Of a stretch of DNA of 64,000 nt, positions 3,505-64,000 are shown one piece after another. The stretch's first letter is position 1; each line of letters opens with the position of its first letter. This DNA is from Xestospongia bergquistia. Taxonomy: Eukaryota > Porifera > Demospongiae > Haplosclerida > Petrosiidae. The stretch is taken from positions 1,364,001 to 1,428,000 of the forward strand of contig OZ014414.1 of the NCBI GenBank assembly GCA_963965975.1, given 5' to 3'. Under the pieces are notes generated by a model. That model was not told the origin of the DNA and ran no database searches. It worked only from the letters and a program-made list of their open reading frames with translations. Both the position numbers and the translations under genes were made by a program.

Positions 3505-3589
3505 TGTAGTTATTGGTGTAAATTATATTATTATAATTATAATGCCATGTTCATTTCTGCATGCATTATCAAGATGATCTTATATGCTA

Positions 3590-4318: not shown

Positions 4319-4369
4319 ATGGAGATTAATGATAACAGTGAGCCACACAATGAAGCAATTTCAACAGGT
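4319..4369 (+). pseudogene. Orphan first coding exon of a PPxY gene copy
   Basis: ATGGAGATTAATGATAACAG here is nearly identical to the start exon of the downstream gene (6212), including the CAACAG|GTAT donor. None of the later exons follow before the next promoter copy. It reads as a truncated duplicate, or as an alternative first exon for the gene at 6.2-7.7 kb. Confidence 0.6.
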
Positions 4370-4419
4370 ATGAATTTACTTGTATAAATCAATATAGAAA
4401 TATTGTATCTACATCATTA

Positions 4420-5960: not shown

Positions 5961-6211
5961 TATGATGAATATAATGTATTTGTAAGTATTTTGATAATGA
6001 AATAATGATTTTTAAAAGTCAAGAACAAAGCTCAAAATAGTGCTATATATGGCTAGTGTATGCTTCACTATGTTAATAACCAATAAATTTAATCCATGTT
6101 CCCAGCAAGAGTATATCAGCTAGACTTTATCAATTTAATTCAATTCGTATAATACGAAGCAATAAATGTAATTACAATGTACATACAATAAAATTAATTC
6201 TAATAATTTAG

Positions 6212-32200: not shown

Positions 32201-32715
32201 TAGATGTTTGTCTATACTTTTGTTAGCAATCTCTCTTACTACATATAATCAATATGACCATTATTTGTGATAGCTTTGCTATGTTATTAAGTGTAAGGAC
32301 TGTTACCATTTATAGAAGTTTTAATAGGACATCCTTACTACACCCATTTTTATCAGTCATTAAAGTAAATTCCATAGTGTAATTATAGTAATTATAGTAA
32401 TTATAGTAATTACAGTGGATAAATAGTGTATGTTTTTGATAATTGTCTTGGGGAAACATGTAACTCATGTGACTATGAATCAGGACAAGTGTAAACCAGT
32501 TAAAAGAGCGAATATATCTAAACAGTGACGTATTAGTTGAGAGTGAGGGTAGTGATGGTTTGCTTTTGACCATAAAAGAGTAAGTTGATTGCTATTGTAA
32601 TGAAGCTTTGGCTATTCCTTACATTTTATCCTAAATAATGTAAATGTTAATTTGTCATTATTACCATAGCCTTTGTTAAGTTATAAATTATATTATATTT
32701 ATTTTGTTGTATAGT

Positions 32716-33603
32716 ATGGCTGCAGGAATCTACACACAATTGGTAGAGGATCCTGAGTTTGATGATGCCATTAAAGTTGCTAATGATCTCAAGCAGAGTC
32801 TTAGAGATTCATTATCAAGTCGAAGAACTACACTAGCTAATCTCAGGTTAATGAAACAAGAGGTTGAAGAAAGTTACAACAAATCCAGAAAGGCTCGTAT
32901 TGGTGGGGCCGTAGCGGCAACAACAGGATCTGCACTCGCCGTTGTTGGTTTTGGTCTCAGTTTCGTGACACTTGGAGCTACCTTAGGCTTAACTATTGCT
33001 GGTGGTACCTTGGCAGCAGCTGGAGGAATAACTTTAGCCGGTGCTGGTATAGGGTATTATGTAGTCTCACAAGACACTCTTAAGCATGCTCAAAATGCAT
33101 GTGATGTTGATCGAGATTTGATGAAGAAAGTTGAGAACAATGGAAAGAAATTCACTCGTCGTATAGAATCACTTGCAAAAAAATACAATACTTCAAGTGA
33201 TGGTATATACGAGATTATTAAATCTAAATTAGGTGTGGCAACGAAAGTCGGAAAATTTTTATATAATGCATACAAATTAGGTGATGGTGTGCTAGATGCA
33301 GGTAGAGTTACATATCGTGCTGTAACTGTTGGAAAAACTGTTGCTCTTGGTGTACGCACAACTCTCACTGGACTTAAATCACTGGCTGGAATTGCTCGAA
33401 TATCATTTGTTGCACTTGATGCAGTTTTCATTCCAATAGATCTTGCTGTAATGATGAAGTCTGCCTATGATGTTCACAAATACAGAACTGGACAGGGATC
33501 AAATTCAGCTGTTGCTAACAAAATTGGTAAACTAATATCTGATCTTGAAGAGCATGAACAAAAGATGAAAGAGAATTTAGAAGAATTAGAATCATCTTGT
33601 TGA
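32716..33603 (+). CDS. Apolipoprotein-L-like protein
   Basis: A single 888-base coding exon preceded by an acceptor (TTGTATAG|TATGG) encodes 295 residues. Order: an N-terminal helical part (DAIKVANDLKQSLRDSLSSR), then a long Gly/Ala-rich hydrophobic hairpin (residues about 58-118: GGAVAATTGSALAVVGFGLS, GATLGLTIAGGTLAAAGGIT), a basic amphipathic part, a second hydrophobic stretch (SFVALDAVFIPIDLAVMMKS) and a C-terminal coiled coil (SDLEEHEQKMKENLEELESS). This is the apolipoprotein-L layout: a paired membrane-inserting helix followed by a membrane-addressing region and leucine-rich tail. Vertebrate ApoL proteins act on membranes in immunity and cell death. There is no signal peptide, so an intracellular protein is likely. 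The reading frame is intact. Flanking DNA recurs in duplicated copies that lack this gene. Confidence 0.75.
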   Translation: MAAGIYTQLVEDPEFDDAIKVANDLKQSLRDSLSSRRTTLANLRLMKQEVEESYNKSRKARIGGAVAATTGSALAVVGFGLSFVTLGATLGLTIAGGTLAAAGGITLAGAGIGYYVVSQDTLKHAQNACDVDRDLMKKVENNGKKFTRRIESLAKKYNTSSDGIYEIIKSKLGVATKVGKFLYNAYKLGDGVLDAGRVTYRAVTVGKTVALGVRTTLTGLKSLAGIARISFVALDAVFIPIDLAVMMKSAYDVHKYRTGQGSNSAVANKIGKLISDLEEHEQKMKENLEELESSC

Positions 33604-45075: not shown

Positions 45076-45294
45076 AGTAAGCAGTCATTTGTAGGAGTAT
45101 ATATGTAGTGTAAACTACTTAACTGTTATTATTAGTAGTTTCCTTATTTGGTGCTTTCTATATTATTTTGCATTATTTTTGTTATATAAAGAGATCTAGT
45201 TGTGGCAGACAGTTAGTTCTGTCCAGACAAATATATCTGTGATGTTGTAAGTGTGAGCTCTATATGGAATACGAACTACGACAAAATTGGCGTC

Positions 45295-45465
45295 AAATTC
45301 ACGATTATTGCACACTCAAAATTCACGATTTTAACGTAATTCACGGTTATTGCATATTCAAATTTCACGATTTTACCGGAAATTCCCGATTTTTACATTT
45401 CAAAATTCACGATTTTACTGTGAATTCGCGATTATTGCAATTCGCGAATTCACGATTTTACAGGT
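45295..45465. repeat. Subterminal TTCACGATTTTAC repeats (left)
   Basis: Units of AAATTCACGATTTTA / ATTCACGGTTATTGCA / ATTCGCGATTATTGCA repeat about eight times at 20-25-base spacing. The inverted counterpart is at 62200-62380. Clustered subterminal motifs are typical transposase-binding arrays, but that role is inferred. Confidence 0.7.
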
Positions 45466-45689
45466 ACAATTAGCAATCTTTGTAAGTATCGATACTCGAT
45501 AATACTGAAAATTCCTTCCATTTCAGTATTAAGGTGGGGATGAAGTAGGCGTCACAATTGGGCGTGGTGATGAACAGAATGATTTTCTTCTTATTATATG
45601 AAGGTACTTGCTAAGGTGATGTTCTCAATATACTATTTGCTTTTGTTGTTATCATTAGTGCTATGTTTAACTCATCAGATTATTATTAT

Positions 45690-46520
45690 TATTATTATTT
45701 TTATCTCCTCTCCACATTCTATGGCAATGGTTGCGATATACCATCTAGATCTCAAGAGGGGACACCCTGGCTATGAACACGAATGGGATAGGCAGATTGC
45801 CATTGATTGATCATCCTAGGAAAAACACATCAGTTGACCAGGTCTGGTATGCTGACGATTTAGCTGCAGAAGACTCACTTACTTGTAAAACCTGACTTCT
45901 ACTCCGAGGCAAAGAGGGTCTTTGCTGGTTTTGGGATACACATTAGTTCAGTTGGGTTTGAATATCTTAGAGGTGCTTTGGATCTCACAACTTCATAAGA
46001 CAAGTTGCTGAAAATAAGATCAGTCTTTGGTGTGAAGAGCTCCATCGCTAAGTCCCATTTTCATGCTGCTTATGCAGCCTTTATTGACAGACTATCGTCA
46101 CATTGGACATAGTTCTTTCAGATTACAGATTTGTTGGCAACTTTTCTAAACAACTCTGGATCAAAACCTCCATTCAAGGAGAAAGAGGAAGCATAACAGG
46201 GATAACACAGCTCCCCTTTATAACAAACTAGGCCCTATCCTTCAGAAGACTATGGATCTTTGTAATGAAAAAGGCGTGTCCATCTGGCTCTCTGTTTTAC
46301 CAATCTAATTTCATGAATTCGCACTAGCTACATAAGACAGCATTGTATCTTTGCTATGGCTGGTCCATTAAGAATTCTTCTTCACGTTGTAATTGTGGCC
46401 AACTCTTTATAACTGATCAATTGCTATCTTGTCCATTGGGGGGTTTCCCTCTATAAGACACAATGAAATATGCAACATTAATGCCTCCTTTGTGTGCCAC
46501 AACATGTCAATAGAGCCAAG
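45690..46520 (+). pseudogene. Reverse-transcriptase retroelement fragment in the left arm (fossil)
   Basis: Short runs match a retroelement reverse transcriptase common in sponges and corals, including a VWYADD catalytic-box remnant and a C-terminal GGFPSIRHNEI block. It is broken in many places and clearly non-functional. The right arm carries the same fossil at 61080-61930, so it predates the duplication of the arms. Confidence 0.65.
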
Positions 46521-46689
46521 TCTGCAACAAATATTATTATTATTATTATTATTATTGTTATTATTATTGTTACTGTTGCTGTTGTTGTTATTATTATTAT
46601 CATTATTATTTTAATGGCTATTACTATTACTATTATTATTATTTTTGTTTTTGTTTTTGTCTTTAAAATCAAATTTCTATGAGTGTAAA

Positions 46690-47850
46690 TAGCCAATGTA
46701 GTAGATGATGAGGTTTTGACACAAGATATGTTTGATCAGTACATTAGTAACCAATTAACATGACAAAAATTACATCACCTAATCGTTATGATTAGAAATG
46801 TGATAAAACATAATGGCCAAACATAAAGGTTTAAGATATCTATAGCAGATCTTAAACAATTAATTTCTATTAGTCAAAGTCAAAGTCATGAATGAAGTTT
46901 TGGCACAAGATATCTTCATATAGTGACATTAGCAACCAATTCATTTGAGAGAAATGACATCATCATAATCTGCATTACAGTGGCCTTAAATCCTAATCTT
47001 TAAACATAAAGCTTTGAGATGGCTACCGCATCACTTAAACCATAATTTCTATGAACAAAAATGGCCAATAGAGTAAATACTGAAGCTTTGGCACAGGATT
47101 AATTTGCAAAAGTCAATTTTAATTACCAATTCACCTTAGAGAAACAACACCTCAATAATCATGATTACAAGAGCCTTAAGCCCTAATGCTGAACTTAAAG
47201 TCTTACAATCTCTATTGCAATCCTTAAACCCTAGTTTATATGAGTGAAAATGACCAATAGAGTAGATAATGAAGTTTTGTGACAAAATATCTTTCAAAGT
47301 GAACTTGTTAACAAATTCATATGAGAAGAATGACATGACCTTAATTGTATGATTGCAATGGCCTTAAACCCTAATCACCATGCAGAAAACCATAAGATGT
47401 CTATGGCAGTCCTTAAAGTCTAATTTTTATGAGTCAACCCTAACATGCCAACATCAAGCCTTAAGATTTCTATTGCAAACCTTAATTGATCCCTCCTTTA
47501 TGTGAGTAAAATAGCGAATGAAGTATATACTGAAGTTTGGTACAATATATATATATATATATGAGAAAAATGACATCATCCTAATAGATATGATTAGAGT
47601 AAATTTAAACCCTAATTGCCAAAGATTAAGCTTAAGGTGACTATGACATCCCTTATACCTTAATTATTTTGCGTGAAAATGGAGTAAATATTGAAGTTTA
47701 GGCACAAGATATCTTTGGAAAGTGATGTTAGTAACCAATTCACTTGTGAAATATGACATCATCCTAACTGGCATGATTACAATGCCTAATCGTCAAACAT
47801 AAAGCTTTTAACAAGTCTATGGCAGTCCTTAACTCAAACTATACAATACT
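46690..47850. repeat. About six 180-base tandem repeats (left arm)
   Basis: Each unit includes GAAGTTTTGGCACAAGATAT, a CAATTCAC..GAGAAATGACATCATC stretch and CCTTAAACCCTAAT. Starts recur near 46708, 46899, 47081, 47271, 47540 and 47692, so the period is mostly 180-190 bases with two irregular steps. The mirror array is at 59290-60480. Confidence 0.75.
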
Positions 47851-47859
47851 TTGATAAAA

Positions 47860-48255
47860 AGGTGAGCTTGATCAACTATTGAACAGACTTCAAACTCTTG
47901 GTGTGACAGATGCCATGAAGTCTCACCCAATTAGTACTGATCCTTTATGCCCTACTGAATTGACTCCAGGTATTGATTGAATAGAAGAGTCAACAGTACG
48001 TGTAATCTGTGGTAATGTGTTTATTCTTCTATTCCTAATTAGGACTATCAAGTCACTGTTTCAAAACTGAGTTGGCTACTCTGGGAATTCAAGTCATAGA
48101 AAGGAGAAAGAAATGTCAACGTATGTACATTTGGTGACTATTTAAGGACTTCAGTAATCCAGCAACCTTGTATCCAACAGCTTCTACATGTACTATTCAC
48201 TTTCTCACTCACTCTACCGACACAATACTACAATGACTATAATCAATTTAAACTC
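47860..48255 (+). pseudogene. HECT-like gene relic (left arm)
   Basis: GELDQLLNRLQTLGVTDAMK matches the HECT-like gene's AELDQLLNGLQSLGVPDDMK at about 55230-55300. The block at 48050-48120 matches its next exon (tcaagtcactgtttcaaaac). It runs on directly into transposase-related DNA, so two genes that are convergent in the core element are fused head to tail here. Confidence 0.6.
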
Positions 48256-49500
48256 AAGGTGGGTTATCTGTGTGTGCTTGATAAAGATGGATGGTTGGAT
48301 TGAAAGCATAGACAAATTTGAGAAGGAATAGAGATGATTAAGAGAATCTGTCCTTCGAGTTCTATAGGCACTAAGAAGGCTCTTATAAGGGAGCTGACCA
48401 TTAATTTTGTTTGGAAGCATGCGTATACCTAGAATTGCTGGTTCCTAATTGCTGGGACTTCACTCCTGTGACTGGAGTAGTCCACCAACTGATTGTTCAA
48501 TTAACTACTGATTCAGTGATATAACTAATCAAAATTTGGATGACCTAGTTAACGAGATTGTAACACGCTTACCTGCTAGTAATGTGCAATTAATACAGAC
48601 CCTGCTTAATGGAAATGGTGGGATATTGCTAAAAGAAAATGGTCTATTCGTTGCGTTGATTCCTTGGGACTTGAAACTAGGCTACATAAAACTCTGATTG
48701 TTGGCAATATAATGTTGGCACATTAATGGATATCACAAAAGTATAAGGTGGCGGTGAGTAATACATTGCAGTATAGATGGACATGGCTGAGTTCCAGTTT
48801 ACTGAAATGTAACCTCTAGTGACAAAGCTGTGACTGTTTTTAATGAATTTTTGCAAGTTGTTGAGTGTTATGGATTACCAATTTGTGTACGTTTGGACCA
48901 TGGAGGAGAAAATTTCTAGTTGGACACTTCATGCTTGAGCACTCCGAGAGAGGTCCAGAGAGAGGAAGTTTCATTTGTGGTAGAAGTGTCCACAAATAAA
49001 GAAGACAGCTTTTATGAAGTGATCTTTTCATGGCTGCATAGTTTCTGTTACTTCCTGTTTATTTGCTGGAAGAAGTGGGTCTATTAGATCCAGTTAGTGA
49101 AGTTGATGTATGTGCCCTTCACTTTGTTTATCTATGTAGAAACCACTTTTTCTTTCGAAATCTAACAAAAAAAAGAAAAGACGGCTGAGTACAGCTGAGA
49201 AGAAAATACTCATTTCAATGTGTTCATTCGTTGTCTTTGCTATATTTACTTCAGTACATACTGGGTATGTCACAGCTATAGCTGAAAAATTTATTGCTGC
49301 AATACAATGTTAAGCAGCCGTGTTTCGTGAGGCATGGTGTAATCATCCTCTCAGTATAGCACACAACCAAACACCACATCAGCTACGGATTCTCAGAACG
49401 CCTCAAGCTAGGATGGAAACACCAACTAGCAGGGTAGTACTAGGAGTTACTGGAATTACTGAAATATATATATTTTGTAATTAGTGCCATGTTATACAAT
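48256..49500 (+). pseudogene. Decayed copy of the DDE transposase gene (left arm)
   Basis: Alignment to 52280-53570 is continuous at the DNA level (for example ACTCCGAGAGAGGTCCAGAG; AACCAAACACCACATCAGCT), but the frame is repeatedly interrupted. It represents an older element copy captured in the arm. The mirror copy in the right arm (58310-58930) lacks about 580 internal bases. Confidence 0.75.
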
Positions 49501-49876
49501 ACGTGGGTTAGTCCATGTAATGTACAAAGCATAATATTAACTATTACTCATCATGACATCAGTTACAACAAGTACATGTGACCTTGATTACTGTACATGA
49601 TGTAAAGATGTCATTTATTAATGCATTAACTTTATTGAGGTTGGGTATTAAATTTTCACAGATAATGTTGGGAACAGTTTGTATATCTTTTATTAAACAT
49701 TTACCATATCCAGAACTTCTTGTATTAACAATAAGATTAAAAATGTATTTTGAAATCATCAATTACTAACAGAGTAAATGACAAATAATGAAAAGAACTA
49801 ATATGAAAATTTTGAAATGATATAAGAGACCGATAGTGAACTTCAAATTATTATATAAAATTATAAAAACGACTTA

Positions 49877-49896
49877 ATAATAATAATAATAATAAT

Positions 49897-49930
<34 letters not shown>

Positions 49931-49931
49931 G
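49877..49931. repeat. (TAA)n microsatellite (left arm)
   Basis: A trinucleotide tract just upstream of the HECT-like gene's 5' end; the mirror (TTA)n tract is at 57837-57891. Confidence 0.9.
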
Positions 49932-50150
49932 AGCTAGTCACAGTTCAGTGACCAATCAGATTTTGCTGTGTCAATCTTTGTTGTACCGCCAAAAAAGTAT
50001 CTAGAAAGTAGAAACGAACGTCTTGCTACTGTTTGCTAAGTCTTTATAGTGGTACGAAGATAAGTTTGAAGATTGAGAGAGGTTGTCTGTAAGTATCAAC
50101 TGTCACGTGTTTACGTTTTACCAACTTATTTAACTAGGGTAGTTTCAAAC

Positions 50151-51460
50151 ATGGCAGGTTTTTTTTCACAGGATCTTGTTGAAAAGGCTCAAGAGGCAAT
50201 AAGAATTATGGAGTCATTTACCTTGCCTACTCCATCATTAGCATCTCAAGGCCCTACTACTAGCTCTGGTGAGACTGAACTATGTATGTATACTATACAT
50301 TCATACCGCGTATGTCTAGTCACTTGCATTCACAAAGACAAAAGCATGATCAGCTGGCATACCAGAAAAATATCAACTAATGTAAACTTTTGCCCCTATG
50401 TAGTTATTGCTATCATACTATAAAGAACACCTGCATGCAGGTATATAGGTTGATAAATGACCTTTCATGTATGCCTACCTATGTATGTATAGGTAATGCA
50501 GGGGATACCATAGTTCAACAAACGTGTGATATTGCACTGAGCAATCTCCGAAGGGCCAGGGAAGCCCTCACTGCTAGAGCTCGAGAATCGAGAAATGAAA
50601 GTTCTTTTAGCAGAGAATTTACCCGAGCATCACCTTTCTTAGGACAGAAGAGAAGCTCTGTGAACCAACTGGACAAGCGACCATGTAAACGTGCAGCAAG
50701 GACATGGACACAAAAATTTGTTTGTTTAAGTCATTGTGCTCAAGATATCATACCAACTACTGATGCAGAGAAAGATACTTTGTTGGGAGCTGGGCTTGGG
50801 GAAAAGAAGATTGTTGTTGAAAATGTTGACTGCTCAGGGGAAGAGTTTTGTGAGCTATTACATGCAGCATTTCCAAAATTAAAAGATTCTGGTGGCTTCA
50901 TATTTGCAAAGTGCAAATGTAATTCGCGGTTTTTAGAACGACTCTCATCAATGTGTTTAACCTCACCAAGAGCTTTACAAGAAGAAATTGGTAACTCTAG
51001 AACATACATTATTCCATTGGAGAGAGATTTAGACTTGACACCCTGCCATCTTCCACCTGGGGTAAGGCTTGCTGATTATTAATCTCAACATATTTATTTA
51101 TCATACATGTACATATAGCCTGTGGTGAAGTGCCTATCATGTGCTAAAGACATTCCTGTTACAGTGTTTTGTCATCATTTGTCATCATGTATAAAGTCAA
51201 GGTGAGATGTCTACTATGCTTATGGTTTGAGTTGATTATATGTCATGTAGGAGAGGGCTAGAGGAGGATATGCAACAATCAAGTGATGAGGATTTTGACC
51301 CACCCCCACCAACCTTTGTTCATCTTCCACATCCTTCCATGTCATCAAGTAATGTTGAGCTTCTTGATGAAGAGTCTGATCTGGAAATTGAAGAGACAGA
51401 AGATGCAATTGTCACACATACACTTGAGCTAAGCATTAATGAAATTGATGAAGTTGGCAG
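50151..51460 (+). pseudogene. 5' half of the HECT-like gene (left arm, truncated duplicate)
   Basis: Exons 50151-50268, 50493-51061, 51119-51201 and 51251-51460 are intact. They encode the same N-terminal half as the minus-strand gene, differing by about one residue (NEIDEVGR versus NEFDEVGR). Past 51483 homology ends and no HECT domain follows, so this copy could only yield a truncated protein. If transcribed it would also produce RNA complementary to the full gene's 5' half. Confidence 0.75.
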
Positions 51461-51483
51461 GTAATGCAGCATATAGTTAGAGC

Positions 51484-52280
51484 TTATACTTTCCATACTT
51501 TCTCTCTCTCTCTCCAGAGATGGAGAGAATCTACTAGAGAGACAAGCAAACAAAATTGGATACTTACAACAACATAATGCTTAGGATGAAGAATAACGAA
51601 AACACAAGCAAGAACAATGTAATAAAAAATTGATAATGAATGGACTATTTTAGTTATTTCTGCATTCCTGGCTTACTAATTTAATGGCCAACTATAATAT
51701 ATATACGTATATATATATATTATATTACATATAGTTAATCAGTGTGTTATTTTATAATTATGTAATTGACATTTGTTACGTCACTAATCAACTACACTGA
51801 TGAAATGTAATTGAATTATATGAAACCTCTAACATCTACATCATAAAGTCTATTCACTTCTCATGTGACAAAGGCAAATGTTAAAGACAGTTGTATCCCT
51901 GTCAGTCTTGTCTGAATATTATACATTAATATTAACATTAATATTAATATTATTATCATTGAACATATATAGGCAGTCAATATCTTTATTGGTGGAAGAG
52001 CATTGTCTTTTAGTTGAAAATCCAGATTATATCATCTCATCACCAGCAGTAATAATCAGTTAGTAATTATGTTGTAATTGTCTCAATATGAAAAGAAAAA
52101 GAAAGCATTCAAGTGCAGAGGTTGTCTTAAAACAGAATGACCAAACTATAAAGAAAACATTACTACATCTAACCGTACACTTCTCTTTTAGCTGAATATT
52201 CTAAAGATAAAAAAAGAGCTTCTCAAGCGACGCCTTTAATTATAATAAAATCTAACAGTCAATTAAGAGTTCATATCCGT
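51484..52280. other. Unique left part of the palindrome centre
   Basis: The stretch is AT-rich, with a TATATA/ATATAT tract (51698-51735) and a TTAATATTAACATTAATATT run (51925-51950). No coding frame is supported. It separates the truncated HECT-like duplicate from the transposase gene. Confidence 0.4.
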
Positions 52281-52415
52281 GTGTGCTTCATAAAGATGGA
52301 TGGTTGGATTGAGAGCATTGACAAACTTGAAGAAAGAGTAGAGATGATCAAAAAAATCTAACCCTCGAGTTCTATAGAAGCTAAGGAGGCTCTTATTGAG
52401 GGAGCTGACCGTTTA

Positions 52416-54248
52416 TTGGAAGCATGTGTACAGCTAGAACTGCTGGTTCCTAATCGCCGGGACTTGACTCCCGTCACTCGAGTAGTCCAACAACTGATTG
52501 TGCAATTAAATACTGACTATGAAATGGCATTGATTACTTCAGTTGTGAGAGATCATGGCCGACCACCTTTAGACATATGCGAGGATCAAGTTAGATTCTT
52601 GGTTGAAAATGGATTTAAAGAAACTGAGATTGCACCACTGATCGGTTGCTCTACACATACAATTCAAAGAAGACTAAAAGAGTTTGGAATTGAATTCAAT
52701 CAATTCAGTGAAATAACTAATCAAGATTTGGATGACCTAGTTAAAGAGATTATAACACGCTTACCTGCTTGTAGTATACGATCAATACAGACCCTGCTTA
52801 AAGTTAATGGTGTGATATTGCAAAGAGAAAGAGTAAGAGAGTCAATTCATCGTATTGACCCCTTGGGACTTGAAACTAGACTATGTAGTACTCGTTATCA
52901 TCAGCAATATAACGTTGCAAACCCAAATGCATTGTGGCACATTGATGGATATCATAAACTTATAAGGTGGAGATTAGTAATACATGGAGGTATAGATGGA
53001 TACAGCCGAGTTCCTGTTTACTTAAAAGTAGCCTCTAATAACAAAGCTGTGACTGTTTTTAATGCATTTCTGCAAGCTGTTGAGTTATTTGGACAACCAT
53101 CTTGTGTACATTCGGACCGTGGAGGAGAAAATTTTCTAGTTGGACGTTTCATGCTTGAGCATTCTGAGAGAGGTCCAGAGAGAGGAAATTACATTTGTGG
53201 TAGAAGTGTCCACAACCAAAGAATAGAACATTTATGGAGAGATCTTTTTCAAGGCTGCATTCGTTTCTATTACTTCCTGTTCTATTCACTGGAAAAAGTG
53301 GGTCTATTAGATCCAGCTAGTGAAGTTGATATATGTGCCCTTCACTTTGTTTATCTACCAATTATACAATCTCAAGTAGACATGTTTCGTGAGGCATGGT
53401 GTAATCATCCTCTCAGTACAGTACACAACCAAACACCACATCAGCTATGGATTCTCAGAATGGCTCAAGCTAGGATGGAAACACCAACTAGCAGGGCAGT
53501 ACTAGGAGTTACTGGAATTACTGAAGTATGTATATTTTGTAATCAGTGTCATGTTATACAATAGGTGGTTTAGTCCATGTAATGTACAAAGCATAATATT
53601 AACTATTACTCATCATGGCATCAAGTACATGTCTCCTTGATATAATCATTAGTTATAGCTTTCTGTAGTCCAAGTCACAAAAAATGACTGAGGACCTAAA
53701 ATGTCCTGGGAAAGCATTCCTTCAGTCCCTGTCTAAAGTTTTATTGTTGTGGTTGGACACTTTTCTAGTTGTGATCAATTTCCCCCTCCCCTCTGTCAAG
53801 ACAAATTCTAGAGTAAACGCTGCTTTGTGTATTAGTTTGTACAGAGTACCAAATGTGCCATTAGTCCACAATTTGTTCTCATTTTCTCCATTTGACTACA
53901 CCCAGCAAAGGATTATAAATCTATTATAACATTATACCAAGTGTAAAGTTAGATTAGCATACTGTGTTGAGGACTATTTAGAAAGAAATGAAAATATTAG
54001 TTATCAGGTTCTTTTATTTGCAGGACTGTGATTATGGGATTGACTGGAGTGGACCAGTGAGTAGTGATGATGATAGTAATACTGTAATTGTTCCTGATCT
54101 TCCATCTAATTTCTTAACTGAACATCAAAGAATCTCATTAACAAAAGAACTTCAACAGTATCCAGACACAAAATTTGGTGTAGAACACTACATCTTAGCG
54201 AAAGGCTTCATCTCAAGTTGCCACTCTCCACCACGAACAGTTACATAA
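52416..54248 (+). CDS. DDE (rve-type) transposase
   Basis: The open frame from 52416 runs to a natural donor (GAA|GTATGT at 53525). It joins in phase to a second exon, 54024-54248 (DCDYGIDWSGPVSSDDD...), ending in TAA; the homologous frame extends a little upstream of 52416. N-terminal third: helix-turn-helix-like region (VENGFKETEIAPLIGCSTHT). Catalytic core: WHIDGYHKLIRWR (first Asp), GGIDGYSRVPVYL, VHSDRGGENF (second Asp) and NQRIEHLWRDLF (Glu), so the D-D-E triad is present. The C-terminus includes NHPLSTVHNQTPHQLWILRM and the acidic YGIDWSGP tail, which I recall from related animal repeats. It would act in the nucleus on the element's ends. Except for its start it looks whole. Confidence 0.75.
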
Positions 54249-54486
54249 ACATTTTCCCTTTTTCAAAAACATAATTATGATTCCCTTCCAAAAATATAAA
54301 CAGATTGAGTGTGAAATAAACTATTGATTGACAAAATGGTTTTCACCAAAAATTCATCAAGTGTATATATTGCAGAGACTACACTGTCCAAAAAAACATA
54401 AAATGAATACAATGAACGTAAGATAGATTGAGCATAAATTAAACTAGTTTTTATCAAGAGCATAAATGTATTGAACATAACATTAA

Positions 54487-57400
54487 TCAAACTACACCAA
54501 ACCCACCATGACAAGTAAAGGCCTGATCCATTTTGAGTTTAAATTGATTATAGTCAATGTAATATCGTGTAGGTAGAGTGAGTGAGAAAGTACATGTAGA
54601 GGCTGTTGGATAGACTGCATTGTCGCTGAATGACAGAGTTGGATCTATATCAAACTCGAGTGGAGGTACAGCTGATGAACCAGTAAAAAAACTCAGAATG
54701 TCCTTTAAGGAAACTTCATTACTCCCACCTGTAAGGAATGTGAAAGTATATTGAAAGTATATAAACAGCGTATGCAAACTTTACAACTAATCTTAGTGAA
54801 TGTATACATAAAGTGACTAATGAAATGATATCAAAGAAACCACTAAGACAATGGAGGCTGAAACTAACTCAATCATGTCATTACTTAGTGAGCTATAAAC
54901 CACAAGGCCCACCCAATCACCAGAAAGTATTGACATTATTGGTAAATGAATATTTATTTTTAATAAATAGGATGCTTACTTTTGCAATCATCTAAATAGT
55001 CACCAAAAAGTATGTACGTTGCCATCTCTTTCTCCTTTCTATGATTTGAATTCTCAGAGTAGTGAACTCGGTTTTGAAACAGTGACTTGATACTCACTAT
55101 TAGAAATAAAAGAGCAAACACATTACCACAGATTATATGTACTATCGACTTTTCTATTCAATCAATACCTGAAGTCAATTTATTAGAGTGTGAAGGAGCA
55201 GTGAAGAGGAGTTCTAAGACTAATCAGGTGAGACTTCATGTCATCTGGCACACCAAGAGATTGAAGTCCATTCAATAGTTGATCAAGCTCGGCTTTTGAT
55301 CGAAGTATTGTATAGTACATTGTGATTCTATGCACTAAGGTAGAACAATCTTCAAGTGTCAATGTTGTGGGACTCTTATTGAACCCACAGTAGGACAGTA
55401 CTTCTATTGCATCCATTGATAGGATTTGGATCTGCTCATTGCTGACAGCATCTATCATCTAAGACAACAATTAACAAGTCCATAAATAAGAGAGATTGGA
55501 AAAGTGTCCCTAACTGCTTAAGTAGGAAAGTTATAAACAAATTATAAAGTTGTATTGTGGGAATAGTACTGTGATTCTTTTTTTAACATAAAATAAAGAA
55601 ACTACACAACAAAATTAGGCTAGTTCAGTAAATCTCAGCTGAATACACTCTTAAATTAGAAGTACCTATAACATAGTCATCATGACTTATTTACCTTGCT
55701 TACTAATACTTGATGTCATAATTAGGTATAATAGTATAGTCAATAGTGATTTCGTTAAGCTCCGTGCCACAAAGGTAATCGTATAAACCCCTTTACAGAT
55801 ATAAGGATAGCCCGATCCTCCTTGACTAAGAGATTCAGACATCAAAGAGCCAATTTTGTAAAAAACATTTGTCTACAATGGAGTTGAGTGAAAATCATTA
55901 GCAGCAACAGACTTTATACGTTTAAAACTGTCAACATCATTCAAATGATTTCATGCATTATATACCTGAAGACCAAAAATATCATGTCGAACTACTTTTA
56001 AAAGGTGCCAAAGTTCTCTTCCCAGTCCTCCACCATCTTCACCCTGTTCTCCTTTGAAGACAACCTATTGAAGAAAGTCTTGTTTATGTGAAAATACAAC
56101 TTGTACATACTTTGATAAGTTTAGTGGGAGAAAAGTCGCAATTGTTCACAATTTTAAAACCGTCTGCAAGTACACATTCTCTGTCAACTTCCAATAAAAA
56201 TTCATCATATTGCTCCACTTTTCTGGACAACCTTTGTATGATGTCTTCCATTGAATAACTACAGAGACAAGAGAGGTTTAAAAGCTCTAACTATATGCAG
56301 CATTACCTGCCAACTTCATCAAATTCATTAATGCTTAGCTCAAGTGTATGTGTGACAATTGCATCTTCTGTCTCTTCAATTTCCAGATCAGACTCTTCAT
56401 CAAGAAGCTCAACATTACTTGATGACATGGAAGGATGTGGAAGATGAACAAAGGTTGGTGGGGGTGGGTCAAAATCCTCATCACTTGATTGTTGCATATC
56501 CTCCTCTAGCCCTCTCCTACATGACATATAATCAACTCAAACCATAAGCATAGTAGACATCTCACCTTGACTTTATACATGATGACAAATGATGACAAAA
56601 CACTGTAACAGGAATGTCTTTAGCACATGATAGGCACTTCACCACAGGCTATATGTACATGTATGATAAATAAATATGTTGAGATTAATAATCAGCAAGC
56701 CTTACCCCAGGTGGAAGATGGCAGGGTGTCAAGTCTAAATCTCTCTCCAATGGAATAATGTATGTTCTAGAGTTACCAATTTCTTCTTGTAAAGCTCTTG
56801 GTGAGGTTAAACACATTGATGAGAGTCGTTCTAAAAACCGCGAATTACATTTGCACTTTGCAAATATGAAGCCACCAGAATCTTTTAATTTTGGAAATGC
56901 TGCATGTAATAGCTCACAAAACTCTTCCCCTGAGCAGTCAACATTTTCAACAACAATCTTCTTTTCCCCAAGCCCAGCTCCCAACAAAGTATCTTTCTCT
57001 GCATCAGTAGTTGGTATGATATCTTGAGCACAATGACTTAAACAAACAAATTTTTGTGTCCATGTCCTTGCTGCACGTTTACATGGTCGCTTGTCCAGTT
57101 GGTTCACAGAGCTTCTCTTCTGTCCTAAGAAAGGTGATGCTCGGGTAAATTCTCTGCTAAAAGAACTTTCATTTCTCGATTCTCGAGCTCTAGCAGTGAG
57201 GGCTTCCCTGGCCCTTCGGAGATTGCTCAGTGCAATATCACACGTTTGTTGAACTATGGTATCCCCTGCATTACCTATACATACATAGGTAGGCATACAT
57301 GAAAGGTCATTTATCAACCTATATACCTGCATGCAGGTGTTCTTTATAGTATGATAGCAATAACTACATAGGGGCAAAAGTTTACATTAGTTGATATTTT

Positions 57401-57616
57401 TCTGGTATGCCAGCTGATCATGCTTTTGTCTTTGTGAATGCAAGTGACTAGACATACGCGGTATGAATGTATAGTATACATACATAGTTCAGTCTCACCA
57501 GAGCTAGTAGTAGGGCCTTGAGATGCTAATGATGGAGTAGGCAAGGTAAATGACTCCATAATTCTTATTGCCTCTTGAGCCTTTTCAACAAGATCCTGTG
57601 AAAAAAAACCTGCCAT
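54487..57616 (-). CDS. Transposon-borne HECT-type ubiquitin-ligase-like protein
   Basis: Minus-strand exons: 57499-57616 (MAGFFSQDLVEKAQEAIRIM), 56706-57274, 56566-56648, 56307-56516, 56111-56258, 55966-56064, 55695-55871, about 55180-55451, about 55012-55075 and 54487-54728. An Arg/Ser-rich region comes first. A Cys/His cluster (CLSCAKDIPVTVFCHHLSSC) may be a small ubiquitin-binding-type zinc finger. An acidic linker leads to a HECT-like domain: FKGEQGEDGGGLGRELWHLL, then SLSQGGSGYPYICKGVY, and finally ILSFFTGSSAVPP and NAVYPTASTCTFSLTLPTRY. The Cys of the last block is the HECT active-site position. The layout resembles vertebrate G2E3-like proteins. Two junctions (55966/55871 and the end of the 55.2-kb exon) do not keep phase cleanly, so the copy may be damaged. 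Confidence 0.7.
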
Positions 57617-57836
57617 GTTTGAAACTACCCTAGTTAAATAAGTTGGTAAAACGTAAACACGTGACAGTTGATACTTACAGACAACCTCTCTCAATCTTCA
57701 AACTTATCTTCGTACCACTATAAAGACTTAGCAAACAGTAGCAAGACGTTCGTTTCTACTTTCTAGATACTTTTTTGGCGGTACAACAAAGATTGACACA
57801 GCAAAATCTGATTGGTCACTGAACTGTGACTAGCTC

Positions 57837-57870
<34 letters not shown>

Positions 57871-58309
57871 ATTATTATTATTATTATTATTAAGTCGTTT
57901 TTATAATTTTATATAATAATTTGAAGTTCACTATCGGTCTCTTATATCATTTCAAAATTTTCATATTAGTTCTTTTCATTATTTGTCATTTACTCTGTTA
58001 GTAATTGATGATTTCAAAATACATTTTTAATCTTATTGTTAATACAAGAAGTTCTGGATATGGTAAATGTTTAATAAAAGATATACAAACTGTTCCCAAC
58101 ATTATCTGTGAAAATTTAATACCCAACCTCAATAAAGTTAATGCATTAATAAATGACATCTTTACATCATGTACAGTAATCAAGGTCACATGTACTTGTT
58201 GTAACTGATGTCATGATGAGTAATAGTTAATATTATGCTTTGTACATTACATGGACTAACCCACGTATTGTATAACATGGCACTAATTACAAAATATATA
58301 TATTTCAGT

Positions 58310-58930
58310 AATTCCAGTAACTCCTAGTACTACCCTGCTAGTTGGTGTTTCCATCCTAGCTTGAGGCGTTCTGAGAATCCATAGCTGATGTGGCGTTTGG
58401 TTGTGTGGCCATGTCCATCTATACTGCAATGTATTACTCACCGCCACCTTATACTTTTATAATATCCATTAATGTGCCAACATTATATTGCCGGCAATCA
58501 GAGTTTTATGTAGCCTAGTTTCAAGTCCCAAGGAGTCAACGCAACGAATAGACCATTTTCTTTTAGCAATATCCCACCATTTCCTTTAAGCAGGGTCTGT
58601 ATTGATTGCATATTACTAGCAGGTAAGCGTGTTACAATCTCGTTAACTAGGTCATCCAAATTTTGATTAGTTATATCACTGAATCAGTAGTTAATTGAAC
58701 AATCAGTTGGTGGACTACTCCAGTCACAGGAGTGAAGTCCCAGCAATTAGGAACCAGCAATTCTAGGTATACGCATGCTTCCTAATGGTCAGCTCCCTTA
58801 TAAGAGCCTTCTTAGTGCCTTAGAACTCGAGGGATAGATTCTCTTAATCATCTCCTCTCCTTCTCAAATTTGTCTATGCTTTTAATCCAACTATCCATCT
58901 TTATGAAGCACACACAGATAACCCACCTTG
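58310..58930 (-). pseudogene. Decayed, internally deleted transposase copy (right arm)
   Basis: Mirror of 48256-49500, lacking about 580 bases of the middle. The remaining parts align with the N-terminal region and the extreme C-terminus of the transposase at 52.4 kb. Confidence 0.7.
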
Positions 58931-59289
58931 AGTTTAAATTGATTATAGTCATTGTAGTATTGTGTCGGTAGAGTGAGTGAGAAAGTGAATAGTACATGTA
59001 GAAGCTGTTGGATACAAGGTTGCTGGATTACTGAAGTCCTTAAATAGTCACCAAATGTACATACGTTGACATTTCTTTCTCCTTTCTATGACTTGAATTC
59101 TCAGAGTAGCCAACTCAGTTTTGAAACAGTGACTTGATACTTCTATTCAATCAATACCTGGAGTCAATTCAGTAGGGCATAAAGGATCAGTACTAATTGG
59201 GTGAGACTTCATGGCATCTGTCACACCAAGAGTTTGAAGTCTGTTCAATAGTTGATCAAGCTCACCTTTTTATCAAAGTATTGTATAGT

Positions 59290-60480
59290 TTGAGTTAAGG
59301 ACTGCCATAGACTTGTTAAAGGCTTTATGTTTGACGATTAGGCATTGTAATCATGCCAGTTAGGATGATGTCATATTTCACAAGTGAATTGGTTACTAAC
59401 ATCACTTTCCAAAGATATCTTGTGACTAAACTTCAATATTTACTCCATTTTCACGCAAAATAATTAAGGTATAAGGGATGTCATAGCCACCTTAAGCTTA
59501 ATCTTTGGCAATTAGGGTTTAAATCTACTCTAATCATATCAATTAGGATGATGTCATTTTTCTCATATATATATATATTGTACCAAACTTCAGTATATAC
59601 TTCATTCGCTATTTTACTCATATAAAAGAGGGATCAATTAAAGTTTGCAATAGAAATCTTAAGGCTTGATGTTGGCATGTTAGGGTTGACTCATAAAAAT
59701 TAGACTTTAAGGACTGCCATAGACATCTTAAGGTTTTCTGCATGGTGATTAGGGTTTAAAGCCATTGCAATCATACAATTAAGGTCATGTCATTCTTCTC
59801 ATATGATTTGTTAACAATGTCACTTTGAAAGATATTTTGTCACAAAACTTCAGTATCTACTCTATTGGTCATTTTCACTCATATAAATTAGGGTTTAAGG
59901 ATTGCGATAGAGATTGTAAGACTTTAAGTTCGGCATTAGGGCTTAAGGCTCTTGTAATTATGATTATTGAGGTGTTGTTTCTCTAAGGTGAATTGGTAAT
60001 TAAATTGACTTTTTAAATTAATCCTGTGTCAAAGCTTCAGTATTTACTCTATTGGCCATTTTTGTTCATAGAAATTATGGTTTAAGTGATGCGGTAGCCA
60101 TCTCAAAGCTTTATGTTTAAAGATTAAGATATAAGGCCACTGTAATGCAGATTATGATGATGTCATTTCTCTCAAATGAATTGGTTGCTAATGTCACTAT
60201 ATGCAGATATCTTGTGCCAAAACTTCATTGATGACTTTGACTAATAGAAATTAATTGTTTACGATCTGCTATAGATATCTTAAGGCTTTATATTTGGACA
60301 TTAGGTTTTATCACATTTCTAATCATAACGATTAGGTGATGTAATTTTTGTCATGTTAATTTTATTACTAATGTACTGATCAAACATATCTTGTGTCAAA
60401 ACCTCATCATCTACTATATTGGCTATTTACACTCATAGAAATTTGATTTTAAAGACTGCTGCACAGATGTTAAGACTTTT
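59290..60480. repeat. About six 180-base tandem repeats (right arm)
   Basis: Inverted counterpart of 46690-47850 with scattered substitutions (for example TAAGGTTTAAGTGATGCGG). Divergence from the left array is visible by eye, unlike the near-identical HECT 5' exons. Confidence 0.7.
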
Positions 60481-60979
60481 GACACAAATTATCTATGGAA
60501 ATAATAGGCAGACTTTGTAAAATATAACAACTTCTGAAGAACAACTTTTTTACTTTCAATAGTTGATAATTTAAGGAACATAACATATTATTATAACTAT
60601 GACTGGTGTGCCTGTTTGATGTATTTGGTGTGCCTAGTACTGACCCTTTAATTACTTCTGAAATGACTGGTAGTTCTACTAAGCAAACACCATTAATTAG
60701 TGATAATATATATAATTACCAATCAATAACAGAGAAAAAAAAATTTTCATACATAACCAACAAGAATCAGTGAAAAGAACTAATTGAACATTCTGTGGAC
60801 AATATAGAAACCAATAGTGAACTTCAAATTATTATAAAATTTAGAAATGACTTATAACAATAACAATACTACTACTACTACTACTACTAAACTAATAGTA
60901 ACACTATTACTAATACTTAATAATGATAATGGTAATAATAGTAAATTAATGTTAACAAAAATAATAATAGTAATAGTAA

Positions 60980-61075
60980 TAGCCATTAAAATAATAATGA
61001 TAATAATAATAACAATAACAACAACAGTAACAACAACAACAACAATAATAATAATAATAATAATAATATTTGTTG
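60980..61075. repeat. (AAT/AAC)n microsatellite (right arm)
   Basis: Trinucleotide tract of AATAATAAT with AACAACAAC; mirror of 46530-46650. Confidence 0.9.
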
Positions 61076-61079
61076 CAGA

Positions 61080-61941
61080 CTTGGCTCTATTGACATGTTG
61101 TGGCACACAAAGGAGGCATAAATGTTGCATATACGTCCTCTTTTCTCCTTGAATGGAGGTTTTGATCCAGAGTTGTTCCCAGCGACAGTCCATTAGGTTT
61201 GGAGATGTTGATTGCTTGTTAATGAGTTTAATGAGGGGGCCACAAATTGAAGAATTGTACTGATGCAAAAGTAGCTGGTTTCTGTAATCCCAGACTTCAC
61301 AGGTGAGTTGGTAAGGCCAAAAGGTCCCGTTCCAGTTCCCCAGGTGGGTTTCTGTCAGATAGGGAGGGAATAATTTTAATTGCAGCGTCTCTTCCAAAGG
61401 TTGGAGGATCTCTTATAGAAAAGTTGCCAACAAATCTGTAATCTGAAAGAAGTAAGTCCAATGTGACATTACTGTGTGAGTGAAGGCTGCATAAGCAGCA
61501 TGAGGTTGGGACTTAGTGATAAAGTTCAGGGTGTTAAGCTCCTCACACCAAAGACTGATCTTATTTTAAACAATTTGTCTTATGAAGTTGTGAGATCCAA
61601 TAGCACCTCCAAGATATTCAAACCCATCTGAACTAATCTGTATCCCAGAACCAGCAGAGACCCTCCTTGCCTCATAGTTGAAGTCAGGTTTTAGAAGTAA
61701 TTGAGTCTTCCAATTATTGGAGAGTAACCATAGTGTTGGGCTAGCGTATTTGGCTGATCCCATCACAAATTCAAATTCTGAAGACTACCACCAGCAGCTG
61801 AATCATCAGCATACTAGACCTGATCAACTGACATGTTTTTCCTAAGGTGATCAATCAATAGTAATGTGCTTATCCCATACATGGCCATAGCCAGGGGGTC
61901 CTCTCTTGAGATGGTATATTGCCATAGAATGTGGAGGAGAG

Positions 61942-61972
<31 letters not shown>

Positions 61973-61980
61973 TAATAACA
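61080..61980 (-). pseudogene. Reverse-transcriptase retroelement fragment in the right arm (fossil)
   Basis: Mirror of the fossil at 45690-46520. A short open stretch reads SSDGFEYLGGAIGSHNFIRQ, a block typical of the region after the catalytic box in this reverse-transcriptase family. It is broken in many places and shorter than the left-arm copy. Confidence 0.6.
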
Positions 61981-62199
61981 GTAATAATCATCATCTCATA
62001 AATATCACAAATGAAAACAAAAGTAAATAGTATATTGAGAACATCACCTTAGCAAGTACCTTCATATAATAAGAAGAGAATCATTCTGTTCATCACCACG
62101 CCCAATTGTGACGCCTACTTCATCCCCACCTTAATACTGAAATGGAAGGAATTTCCAGTATTATCGAGTATCGATACTTACAAAGATTGCTAATTGTAC

Positions 62200-62380
62200 C
62201 TGTAGAATGGTGAATTCGCGAATTGCAATAAACGTGAATTCACAGTAAAGTCGTGAATTGTGAAATGAGAAAATCGCGAATTTCCGGTAAAATCGTGAAA
62301 TTTGAATATGCAATAACCGTGAATTACTAGTAAAATCGTGAATTTTGAGTGTGCAATAATCGTGAATTTGGCGCCTATTT
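62200..62380. repeat. Subterminal TTCACGATTTTAC repeats (right)
   Basis: Inverted counterpart of 45295-45465, with units such as GTAAAATCGTGAA and GCAATAACCGTGAATT. Confidence 0.7.
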
Positions 62381-62471
62381 TTGTCGTAGTTCGTATTCCA
62401 TAGCTCTATAGCTCACACTGTATACATATAATGTTATGATTGACTTAATGTCTTTTAATTTAACAGGTAAT

Positions 62472-64000
62472 ATGGCTGAAAATACCTTATCAGACAATAT
62501 AATGAATGGTATTCCAGAGATAAATGAACTGATTACCTATGCTAAAACATCAGAATGGAATGAATTAGGTATAAAGTTAGGGTTAGGTACTCAGAGTCTA
62601 GCTGAATGTAATGGCTGTGTCAAGATGTATCAATTATGGCTTAGAGAAAAAGGTTATGGTGCAACAAGGAGAATTCTGATAAAAGCTCTGAGAGAAATTA
62701 AAGAGGCTAGAGTTGTTGATGACTATGTAGAAAAATGTTTGAAAAAATTGCCAATGGTTAGTTAATACAACTGAATCACGTATTTAAATCACATATTATA
62801 TGCAACTCAAGACAAAATGGCATGTCACACTTAACATGCATGTAATATATTAGTGTGCTTTACTATTGTCCAATAGTAAAGTGATTGTAAGTAATAAGTG
62901 ATTGTGATAAGTTGTTATGAGTGAAATCATAAATTAATTTATTTAATATAGGGAGGAAAAAGTGTTCAAACCAGTAGTGATGTAAGCCAGCATGAAACAA
63001 GTAAGTGTGTAGTAAATACTATAATCCTAAAAATCTATTTAACTAAATGTATTGCCATATAAGCTGTAGTGATCTTTAGTTTATAAAGATATGAGTATTC
63101 AAAGAACCTTGTTTGTATTTCTACTAGATGTTATGCTTCTTCAAGGTTAGCACAGACTGTAAATTGATGTAGTACATAGTAAAAGAATGACTATATATTG
63201 AATAATCGAGATATGTTATATAATGTATATATAAATGCTTGAGAATTTTATTTGTTGTCTCGTGAAATTGTAAAATATTCTAATTATGTCTATTAGCTAG
63301 AATTTTGTTAATACCTAATTTATTTACTTTATATTTGCTCTAATCAATGTATATAGGTACACTTCTTACACCTCCAGCTGATCCTGGTCCAGGTAATGAT
63401 AGTTTGTTACTGATGTATATGTTTAGTTTGTTACCAACTTATTGTTATTAGATATTGATATTTTTTTATATGATATTTGCTATAATATACATCTGTTAGC
63501 TAGAATTTTGTTAATACCTAATTTATTTACTTTATATTTGCTCTAATCAATGTATATAGGTATAGTTCCTACACCTCCAGCTGATCCTGGTCCAGGTAAT
63601 GATAGTTTGTTACTGATGTATATGTTTAGTTTGTTACCAACCTTTTGTTTTTAGATATTGATATTGATAAAATCATGGATGCCATTCCTGACAAGTCTGA
63701 TTTAATGAGTGTGTTAGATGGTATTAAAGATGATGTCGATAGATGGCGTGAGTTGTTTGGGAAGCGTCTTCTCAATGATGCAAAAAAAAGTGATCCATGG
63801 TTTCGTAATTTTACTGAGCTCGAGTTTCTGATTGATGAAATAACTGAAGATCATCCTGATGATTACATTTACACTTGGGGCTCTGTCATCAAATCATTAG
63901 ACAAACCAACTCCCATTAAAATTGGGAGTAATAGAGCTGGTTTCAAGCCTGTTTCTGATGTAGTCAAAGATCATTTAAATAAACGTGATGTCTATGACAA
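62472..64000 (+). CDS. Death-domain protein with the caspase-gene tail but no protease exon (3' end outside window)
   Basis: ATG at 62472, within an exon starting at 62467. Exons: 62472-62756 (285 nt, death domain: EINELITYAKTSEWNELGIK, then MYQLWLREKGYGATRRILIK), 62952-63000 (linker GKSVQTSSDVSQHE), 63357-63392 and 63560-63595 (both TPPADPGPG mini-exons), and 63655 to the window end. The last exon is highly similar to the C-terminal domain of the gene at 21464-21831 (KSDLMSVLDGIKDDVDRWRE; WFRNFTELEFLIDEIT). All junctions keep phase. There is no proline/asparagine repeat exon and no caspase-like exon between the linker and the mini-exons. It is probably a protease-less paralogue that acts as adaptor or decoy (inference). 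The exon begins GTAATATG like the DD exon at 38845, so upstream coding exons are also possible. Confidence 0.7.
63295..63655 (+). repeat. Tandem duplicated mini-exon cassette
   Basis: Two blocks of about 190 bases share TAGAATTTTGTTAATACCTA, a TATATAG acceptor, a TPPADPGPG mini-exon and TTTAGTTTGTTACCAAC. The first block ends with a relic of the last exon's start (TTAGATATTGATATTT). It is the same arrangement as at 21060-21475, so the duplication predates the split of the two genes or recurred. Confidence 0.75.

What the first reader, a model, noticed from the sequence alone, without database searches (positions are those of the whole stretch)
45251..62418. 17-kb near-perfect palindrome made of a DNA transposon and its truncated inverted duplicate
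Arms of 6.2 kb are inverted copies; 50073-51464 pairs with 56303-57694 at a constant coordinate sum with almost no differences. The centre carries the only whole transposase gene. Such long palindromes are unstable and hard to assemble, so this is either a young rearrangement (hairpin-type transposition or template switching) or an assembly join of two allelic copies.
Basis: seen in the sequence. Interest (0 to 1): 0.75.

Follow-up and report, generated by a model that had tools for sequence, protein, structure and literature searches.

The report
Palindromic transposon with self-copying arms
The big palindrome is one transposon with giant mirror-image ends that jumped into place as a unit; its relatives indicate that the two arms overwrite each other and lengthen, so it looks like real biology and not a genome-assembly error.

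Summary
The inverted arms are real (45263-51488 and 56279-62402, centre 51489-56278), but only the inner third is near-perfect: 99.8% inside, about 96% mid-arm, 85-87% outside. It is neither a local rearrangement nor an allele join: the 17,140-bp unit has matching TATGG...CCATA termini, a 6-bp target-site duplication, and five uninterrupted copies of the host repeat it landed in. Seven more palindromic loci were read; E2, E4 and E5 also have perfect 6-bp duplications. Transposase domain, termini and duplication fit IS3EU; a HECT-like gene is carried too. Across E1-E4, a block 0.4-1.2 kb inside each end groups by end type (138 L/R sites, 0 element-specific), while the innermost 2.1 kb groups by element (50 element-specific, 0 L/R). 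Arms therefore convert each other within each copy. One copy has its centre flipped, one has arms extended by about 430 bp, and E5 and E8 have arms holding more genes. Best reading: a foldback-like IS3EU transposon whose arms evolve by inter-arm conversion, as proposed for Galileo but several-fold longer. New variant of a known kind.

The parts
45257..45262 (.). left target-site duplication GCTCTA
   Evidence: identical to 62403-62408; uninterrupted site in L035-L039
62403..62408 (.). right target-site duplication GCTCTA
45263..51488 (+). left arm (giant terminal inverted repeat), L-type
56279..62402 (-). right arm (giant terminal inverted repeat), R-type
45263..45662 (+). left terminus: TATGGAATACG..., with 42-bp tandem subrepeats (45296-45461); plausible transposase-binding repeats (inference)
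62003..62402 (-). right terminus, same terminal motif and 43-bp subrepeats (62220-62368)
45663..46462 (+). subterminal block (0.4-1.2 kb inside the end) that differs between L and R arms but is about 98% alike among the L arms of E1-E4
   Evidence: 138 L/R-type, 12 mixed, 0 element-specific sites
49360..51488 (+). inner left arm, homogenised with the right arm (99.8%)
56279..58407 (-). inner right arm, homogenised with the left arm
48788..49359 (+). 572-bp block present only in the left arm here; in both arms of E2, one arm of E3, neither arm of E4
48265..49561 (+). degenerate transposase remnant in the left arm (82-93% DNA identity to the central gene)
51489..56278 (.). centre (spacer of the palindrome)
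52362..53564 (+). IS3EU-type DDE transposase frame (Pfam rva_4 E 2.4e-75; D195, D252, E289)
54487..55458 (-). HECT ubiquitin-ligase-like coding pieces (C-terminal piece Pfam HECT E 9.3e-09, with an STC cysteine motif; the upstream pieces had no Pfam HECT hit and are assigned by inference)
50381..51082 (+). left-arm copy of a 233-aa open frame without a Pfam hit; probably 5' exon material of the HECT gene (inference)
56685..57386 (-). right-arm copy of the same frame, on the same strand as the HECT pieces and pointing into the centre
45098..45256 (+). host interspersed repeat into which the element inserted (its end continues after the right duplication)

Best explanation
It is one copy of an IS3EU-type DNA transposon family whose terminal inverted repeats have grown to about 6 kb, making the element palindromic. 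It inserted as a complete 17.1-kb unit with a 6-bp duplication (shown), as DDE transposases do. The inner arms of each copy have overwritten each other by gene conversion since the copies diverged (shown by trees and site patterns; timing relative to insertion not shown). A block 0.4-1.2 kb inside the ends kept two distinct types, L and R, in E1-E4 (shown). Crossing over between arms can flip the centre, as in E3 (flipped state shown, event inferred). Conversion tracts that run past the arm/centre border copy one flank of the centre onto the other, so arms grow inward: about 430 bp in E2 and gene-sized pieces in E5 and E8 (states shown, event inferred). The likeliest trigger is a break or stalled fork in or near the centre, whose resected end invades the opposite arm and copies inward (inferred). 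The transposase moves the unit; the HECT-like gene is a passenger that may act on host silencing or the transposase (inferred).
For: Unit insertion: matching termini and perfect 6-bp duplications in E1 (GCTCTA), E2 (GAGCAT), E4 (AAAGGA) and E5 (TGTATG), 4 of the 5 loci with both ends found; E6 is the miss. Five of five fetched host-repeat copies, out of 23 other matches listed, run through the site. Family: 16 of the 20 longest listed matches to the inner arm form 8 inverted pairs, counted. Conversion: 8 arms of E1-E4; at 45663-46463, 138 L/R-type, 0 element-specific, 12 mixed sites; at 49360-51488, 0 L/R-type, 50 element-specific, 3 mixed. FastTree: L clade 1.000 outside; E1, E2 and E3 arm pairs 0.995-0.998 inside, E4's two arms adjacent. 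The 572-bp indel has one pair of breakpoints but is in both arms of E2, one of E1 and of E3, none of E4. Flip: the transposase reads away from the L-type end in E1, E2, E4 and towards it in E3. Growth: E2; E5 arms 11,739 bp at 99.93%; E8 with transposase and HECT pieces in both arms. Simple relative: X9, 2,027 bp, TIRs of about 0.2 kb, 6-bp duplication.
Against: No reads were examined; only one assembly. Fine-scale inference rests on four close copies. In the mid-arm tree E1's arms do not pair (E1R groups with E4, 0.944), and 46463-49360 holds 30 mixed against 28 element-specific sites, so homogenisation is patchy. The terminal 0.4 kb shows no L/R-type sites at all (3 mixed of 58 usable columns; 7 mixed of 316 without E3). 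E5 has R-type sequence at both ends, so the L/R block is not always spared. E6 arm blocks are mostly 80-92% alike and E7 blocks 88-99.6%, and E6 lacks a matching duplication. Conversion during transposition, before insertion, cannot be excluded. A break in the centre as trigger is inferred only.
Confidence: 0.82

Rival explanations
1. Assembly artefact: two allelic or paralogous copies joined head to head, or arms made falsely alike by polishing.
For: Long palindromes are hard to assemble; no reads were available here.
Against: Perfect 6-bp duplications at E1, E2, E4, E5, uninterrupted sites, similar architecture at loci on contigs C4, C9, C11, C10 and C8, element-specific variants shared by both arms of a copy, and arms that still differ at defined places.
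Confidence: 0.05
2. Local young rearrangement: one normal transposon was duplicated in inverted orientation at this site after insertion (template switch, hairpin-type event).
For: Inner arms are 99.8% identical.
Against: The same arm/centre border occurs in E1, E3 (2.2 Mb away on C4) and E4 (C11); one pair of duplications bounds the whole; L and R block types are shared across copies. The palindrome predates these insertions.
Confidence: 0.04
3. Palindromes are rebuilt at each transposition (an intermediate copies one arm from the other), not by ongoing conversion in the chromosome.
For: Inner arms of E2 and E4 are 98.7-100% identical in each 400-bp step from 47.26 kb inwards (steps counted on E1); excision and gap repair could give the same pattern.
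Against: E1 and E3 still carry both states of the 572-bp indel and mid-arms of 97-99%, so a full rebuild at each move does not happen.
Confidence: 0.15
4. Two transposons inserted next to each other in opposite orientation, acting as a composite transposon.
For: Arms contain remnants of the genes in the centre, and some loci are nested mosaics (E6, E7).
Against: The terminal motif was found only at outer ends in the loci scanned, and not at all in E7; one duplication pair bounds E1.
Confidence: 0.05

Closest known systems
IS3EU (IS3EU/GingerRoot) DNA transposon superfamily
   Same: rva_4/rve integrase-type DDE transposase, TA...TA termini of the form TATGG...CCATA and 6-bp duplications. Passages of PMC10045372 give TA..TA termini and usually 6-bp duplications; passages of PMC12730594 give TAYGG..CCRTA for fungal IS3EU with passenger genes.
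   Different: About 6-kb (E1-E4) to 11.7-kb (E5) terminal inverted repeats, a palindromic body and a HECT-like gene; I saw neither in the listings, which are open-access papers only.
Galileo (P superfamily, Drosophila), foldback-like
   Same: Long TIRs, recruitment of internal sequence into TIRs, alike TIRs within a copy, and repair-based TIR growth proposed (passages of PMC3573991); stem-loop-prone DNA (passages of PMC2775673).
   Different: Different superfamily; the longest Galileo TIRs in D. mojavensis are about 1.26 kb and its longest-TIR copies lack the transposase frame (PMC3573991). Here arms are several-fold longer, flank the genes, and conversion is seen site by site.
Foldback elements and Tetris (D. 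virilis)
   Same: Long inverted repeats around a middle domain, tandem subrepeats in the TIR (passages of PMC4079207).
   Different: Tetris is apparently non-autonomous and suggested to be Mutator-like with 8-10-bp duplications; this family holds its own IS3EU-type transposase frames.
TIR-TIR recombination inversions of bacterial insertion sequences
   Same: Recombination between TIRs flips the element, comparable to the flipped centre of E3 (abstract of PMC3004938).
   Different: Bacterial IS; TIRs far shorter (recalled).
KolobokP composite-like transposons
   Same: Long repeats around an internal coding region in animals (passages of PMC9587614).
   Different: KolobokP repeats are direct, about 450 or 660 bp, Kolobok superfamily.

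Membership tests
IS3EU superfamily | integrase-type DDE transposase of the IS3EU kind | tested here: inconclusive
   Pfam rva_4 E 2.4e-75, rve 4.2e-08; D195-D252-E289: an integrase-type DDE core. That rva_4 is the IS3EU kind is inferred from termini and duplication.
IS3EU superfamily | TA...TA termini | tested here: met
   TATGG...CCATA at both ends of E1, E2, E4, E5, E6 and one end of E3 and E8; none found in E7
IS3EU superfamily | 6-bp target-site duplication | tested here: met
   E1, E2, E4, E5; not E6; E3 and E8 have one end only
IS3EU superfamily | transposase groups with known IS3EU proteins in a tree | not testable with these tools
   no Repbase sequences available
Galileo / P superfamily | P-type transposase with THAP domain, 7-8-bp duplications | tested here: not met
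   rva_4/rve domain, 6-bp duplications
Foldback architecture (descriptive class) | long terminal inverted repeats around a middle segment, with TIR subrepeats | tested here: met
Polinton/Maverick | protein-primed polymerase and packaging genes with long TIRs | tested here: inconclusive
   Eleven frames inside E1 were scanned against Pfam; above cut-off only rva_4, rve and HECT appeared. Other frames and the other copies were not scanned.
Composite transposon | complete mobile units at each end | tested here: not met
   terminal motif only at outer ends

The most novel reading that the evidence does not exclude
The family keeps two kinds of sequence in one giant repeat for a reason: a subterminal block must stay an L/R pair because transposition needs unlike flanks to its ends, while everything further in is free to be copied between arms. 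Arm conversion is then a built-in repair and gene-capture route: it copies gene pieces between arms, flips the centre, and lets arms swallow genes step by step (E1-like, then E5-like, then E8-like).
Probability: 0.17. Interest if true: 0.75.

Novelty: new variant of a known kind. Interest (0 to 1): 0.55.

Why it matters
TIR growth by inter-end conversion was proposed for Galileo from TIR structure (passages of PMC3573991). Here one genome holds a graded series (ordinary relative with TIRs of about 0.2 kb, 6-kb arms, arms extended by 430 bp, 11.7-kb arms, arms holding both genes) with markers that separate conversion from common descent. That makes the origin and upkeep of giant palindromic transposons testable, and warns that arm identity cannot be read as insertion age.

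Tried and rejected
Assembly join and local rearrangement were weighed and disfavoured; neither could be tested with reads. Insertion preference for palindromic targets, suggested by E1's hairpin target, was dropped: the flanks printed for E2, E4 and E5 show no such hairpin by eye, and the hairpin belongs to the host repeat.

Selection: transposase dN/dS between E1-E4 and E5, E6, E8, and among these, is 0.32-0.57; comparisons with the E5 arm remnant give 0.49-0.67, and those among E1-E4 give 1.0-2.9 with few changes. Codons with stops or gaps were dropped first. For the HECT pieces dN is below dS in 12 of 13 comparisons with E1. The arm frame has stops in the matches of E4, E5, E7, E8 and part of E6; only four E2-E3 comparisons were printed (0.49-0.54), so its constraint is open. 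No structure prediction or fold search was run.

X3 has about 0.6 kb of inverted sequence nearly 6 kb apart, but no TA...TA ends with a 6-bp duplication were found. X9's duplication came from a search that asked for such ends; its 13-of-14 terminal match was not asked for, and its transposase frame contains stops.

Papers: PMC10045372, PMC12730594, PMC4168063, PMC4079207, PMC3573991, PMC2775673 and PMC9587614 were seen as passages, PMC3004938 as abstract and outline, the rest as search listings. PMC2268567 is not held.
Full report
OBSERVATION. The window is G000:C4:1364001-1428000 of a 146.5-Mb genome in 21 contigs. The inverted arms exist. Identity falls from the centre outwards: 2,129 bp with 5 mismatches (49360-51488 with 56279-58407), then about 96% (46468-48787 with 58408-61132), then 85-87% (45263-46148 with 61416-62402). 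The claim of a near-perfect 17-kb palindrome is true only of the inner part.

IT IS ONE TRANSPOSON. The outer ends read TATGGAATACGAACTACGACAAAA inwards on both sides, flanked by GCTCTA (45257-45262 and 62403-62408). With one GCTCTA and the insert left out, the flanks match five of five fetched copies of an interspersed repeat...AAGTGTGAGCTCTATAGCTCACACT..., of which L037 and L038 differ by a base within it. This is an empty-site demonstration.

THE FAMILY. The inner arm has 30 listed matches in the genome; of the 20 longest, 16 fall into eight inverted pairs (counted; the search gives lower bounds). I read eight loci: E1 (window), E2 C9:6706797-6724912, E3 C4 (right end 3663286), E4 C11:5444254-5460782, E5 C10:3368828-3401931, E6 C8:4084041-4116504, E7 C10 3.608-3.638 Mb and E8 C10 3.759-3.789 Mb. 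All eight have long inverted arms, though E6 and E7 are mosaics with less similar blocks (E6 mostly 80-92%, E7 88-99.6%). Both ends were found in E1, E2, E4, E5 and E6; four of these five have perfect 6-bp duplications, and E6 does not.

GENES. The central frame 52362-53564 matches Pfam rva_4 (E 2.4e-75) and rve (4.2e-08), with D195, D252 and E289. In E1 an in-frame stop lies just upstream of the 400-aa frame; E2 and E4 read through there. On the opposite strand, 54487-54780 matches the end of the HECT domain (E 9.3e-09) with an STC cysteine motif, which is present in 10 of the 11 matches listed for E1-E8, E1 included; E2's match has two stops. A 233-aa frame lies in each arm; the right copy points into the HECT pieces and the left copy points at the transposase. 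I infer that it is 5' material of the HECT gene, duplicated by arm growth; it has no Pfam hit. Transposase dN/dS between subfamilies is 0.32-0.57.

ARMS CONVERT EACH OTHER. Eight arms of E1-E4 were aligned from terminus to centre. Columns with any gap were dropped; sites with three bases and singletons were set apart. Counts as L/R-type, element-specific, mixed: 45263-45663: 0, 0, 3 (only 58 usable columns); 45663-46463: 138, 0, 12; 46463-47263: 6, 3, 17; 47263-48063: 0, 16, 3; 48063-49360: 0, 9, 10; 49360-50463: 0, 26, 1; 50463-51488: 0, 24, 2. Leaving out E3, whose R arm is truncated, gives 155, 0, 10 at 45663-46463, 0, 38, 3 at 49360-51488, and 0, 0, 7 of 316 columns in the terminal 0.4 kb. 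So the L/R difference sits in a subterminal block, not in the very ends. FastTree on 45263-46862 separates L from R (support 1.000). On 49360-51488 the E1, E2 and E3 arm pairs have supports 0.995-0.998, and the two E4 arms lie together at the root of the printed tree. In the mid-arm, E2 (0.991), E3 (0.913) and E4 (0.996) pair, but E1 does not: E1R groups with E4 (0.944). A 572-bp indel with one pair of breakpoints is present in both arms of E2, absent from both arms of E4 and mixed in E1 and E3. With E1 and E3 keeping both states, conversion in opposite directions in E2 and E4 is the simplest account (inference).

FLIPS AND GROWTH. The transposase reads away from the L-type end in E1, E2 and E4 but towards it in E3, as expected from one crossover between arms. 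E2 carries about 430 bp of the transposase-side centre also on the HECT side, placed at the arm border, so its arms are longer; E1, E3 and E4, and by the matches E5 and E8, lack it there. E5 has 11,739-bp arms at 99.93%, R-type sequence at both ends and HECT pieces in both arms. E8 has arms of about 5.6 kb in two blocks (99.8% and 97.6%) around a 1.4-kb spacer, with transposase and HECT pieces in both; its left terminus was not found. A relative, X9 (40% protein identity), is an ordinary 2,027-bp element with TIRs of about 0.2 kb and a broken transposase frame. The series suggests inward growth, but the order of events is inferred.

MECHANISM. Shown: insertion as a unit; conversion between arms of the same copy; an L/R subterminal block kept in E1-E4; flipped and extended states. 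Inferred: breaks or stalled forks in the centre start the events, and the broken end invades the opposite arm and copies inward. This is close to the TIR-extension model proposed for Galileo (passages of PMC3573991) and to TIR-TIR inversions in insertion sequences (abstract of PMC3004938).

NOVELTY. IS3EU termini and duplication as described in PMC10045372 and PMC12730594 (passages) fit. In the listings of the searches made I saw no IS3EU element with kilobase arms, nor a HECT gene in one. This is weak: the library is open-access only, one search listed 10 of 7,681 papers, and Repbase was not searchable. I file it as a new variant of a known kind.

The IS3EU transposase row is now inconclusive, since no IS3EU protein was compared.

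Noticed in passing
G000 C6:3.42-4.31 Mb, C5:4.62-5.12, C15:2.38-3.16, C7:4.67-5.24, C11:3.47-3.74, C14:2.74-3.20 Mb: Broken copies of this family recur every 110-200 kb in mid-contig blocks on several contigs. Flanking stretches of 1.5-3.7 kb are 97.7-99.1% alike in three comparisons, so giant repeated units of over 100 kb may exist; they might be centromere-like or segmental duplications.
   Followed up: partly
window 45098-45256 plus 62409-62418; L035-L039: Interspersed repeat of about 170 bp ending in a 10-base hairpin (AGTGTGAGCT CTAT AGCTCACACT); resembles a solo LTR (starts near TGTAG, ends near CTACA), unclassified.
   Followed up: partly
G000 C3:6373183-6373590, C4:9011387-9011736, C14:4586603-4586967: Pairs of 74-80% matches to the element's terminus in inverted orientation about 20-55 bp apart: probable MITE relatives of about 0.4 kb; other similar pairs are listed.
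   Followed up: no
L012 local 2351-6519 (C4:3.642-3.647 Mb): Satellite-like repeats of about 140-bp spacing lie next to where the missing end of E3 should be.
   Followed up: no
window 26009-27297: Tandem array of about 38-bp units, roughly 84-89% alike, in a 2-kb step with extreme GC skew (-0.52).
   Followed up: no
window 8641-9069, 20249-20980, 32704-33603, 62412-62765: Death-domain (the copy at 62412 just under Pfam's cut-off), caspase and ApoL-like frames around the element: a cluster of cell-death-type genes.
   Followed up: no
G000 C10:3.37-3.40, 3.61-3.63, 3.76-3.79, 3.85-3.87 Mb: Four loci of the family lie within about 0.5 Mb on C10 (the last not fetched), so local hopping or segmental duplication is possible.
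   Followed up: no
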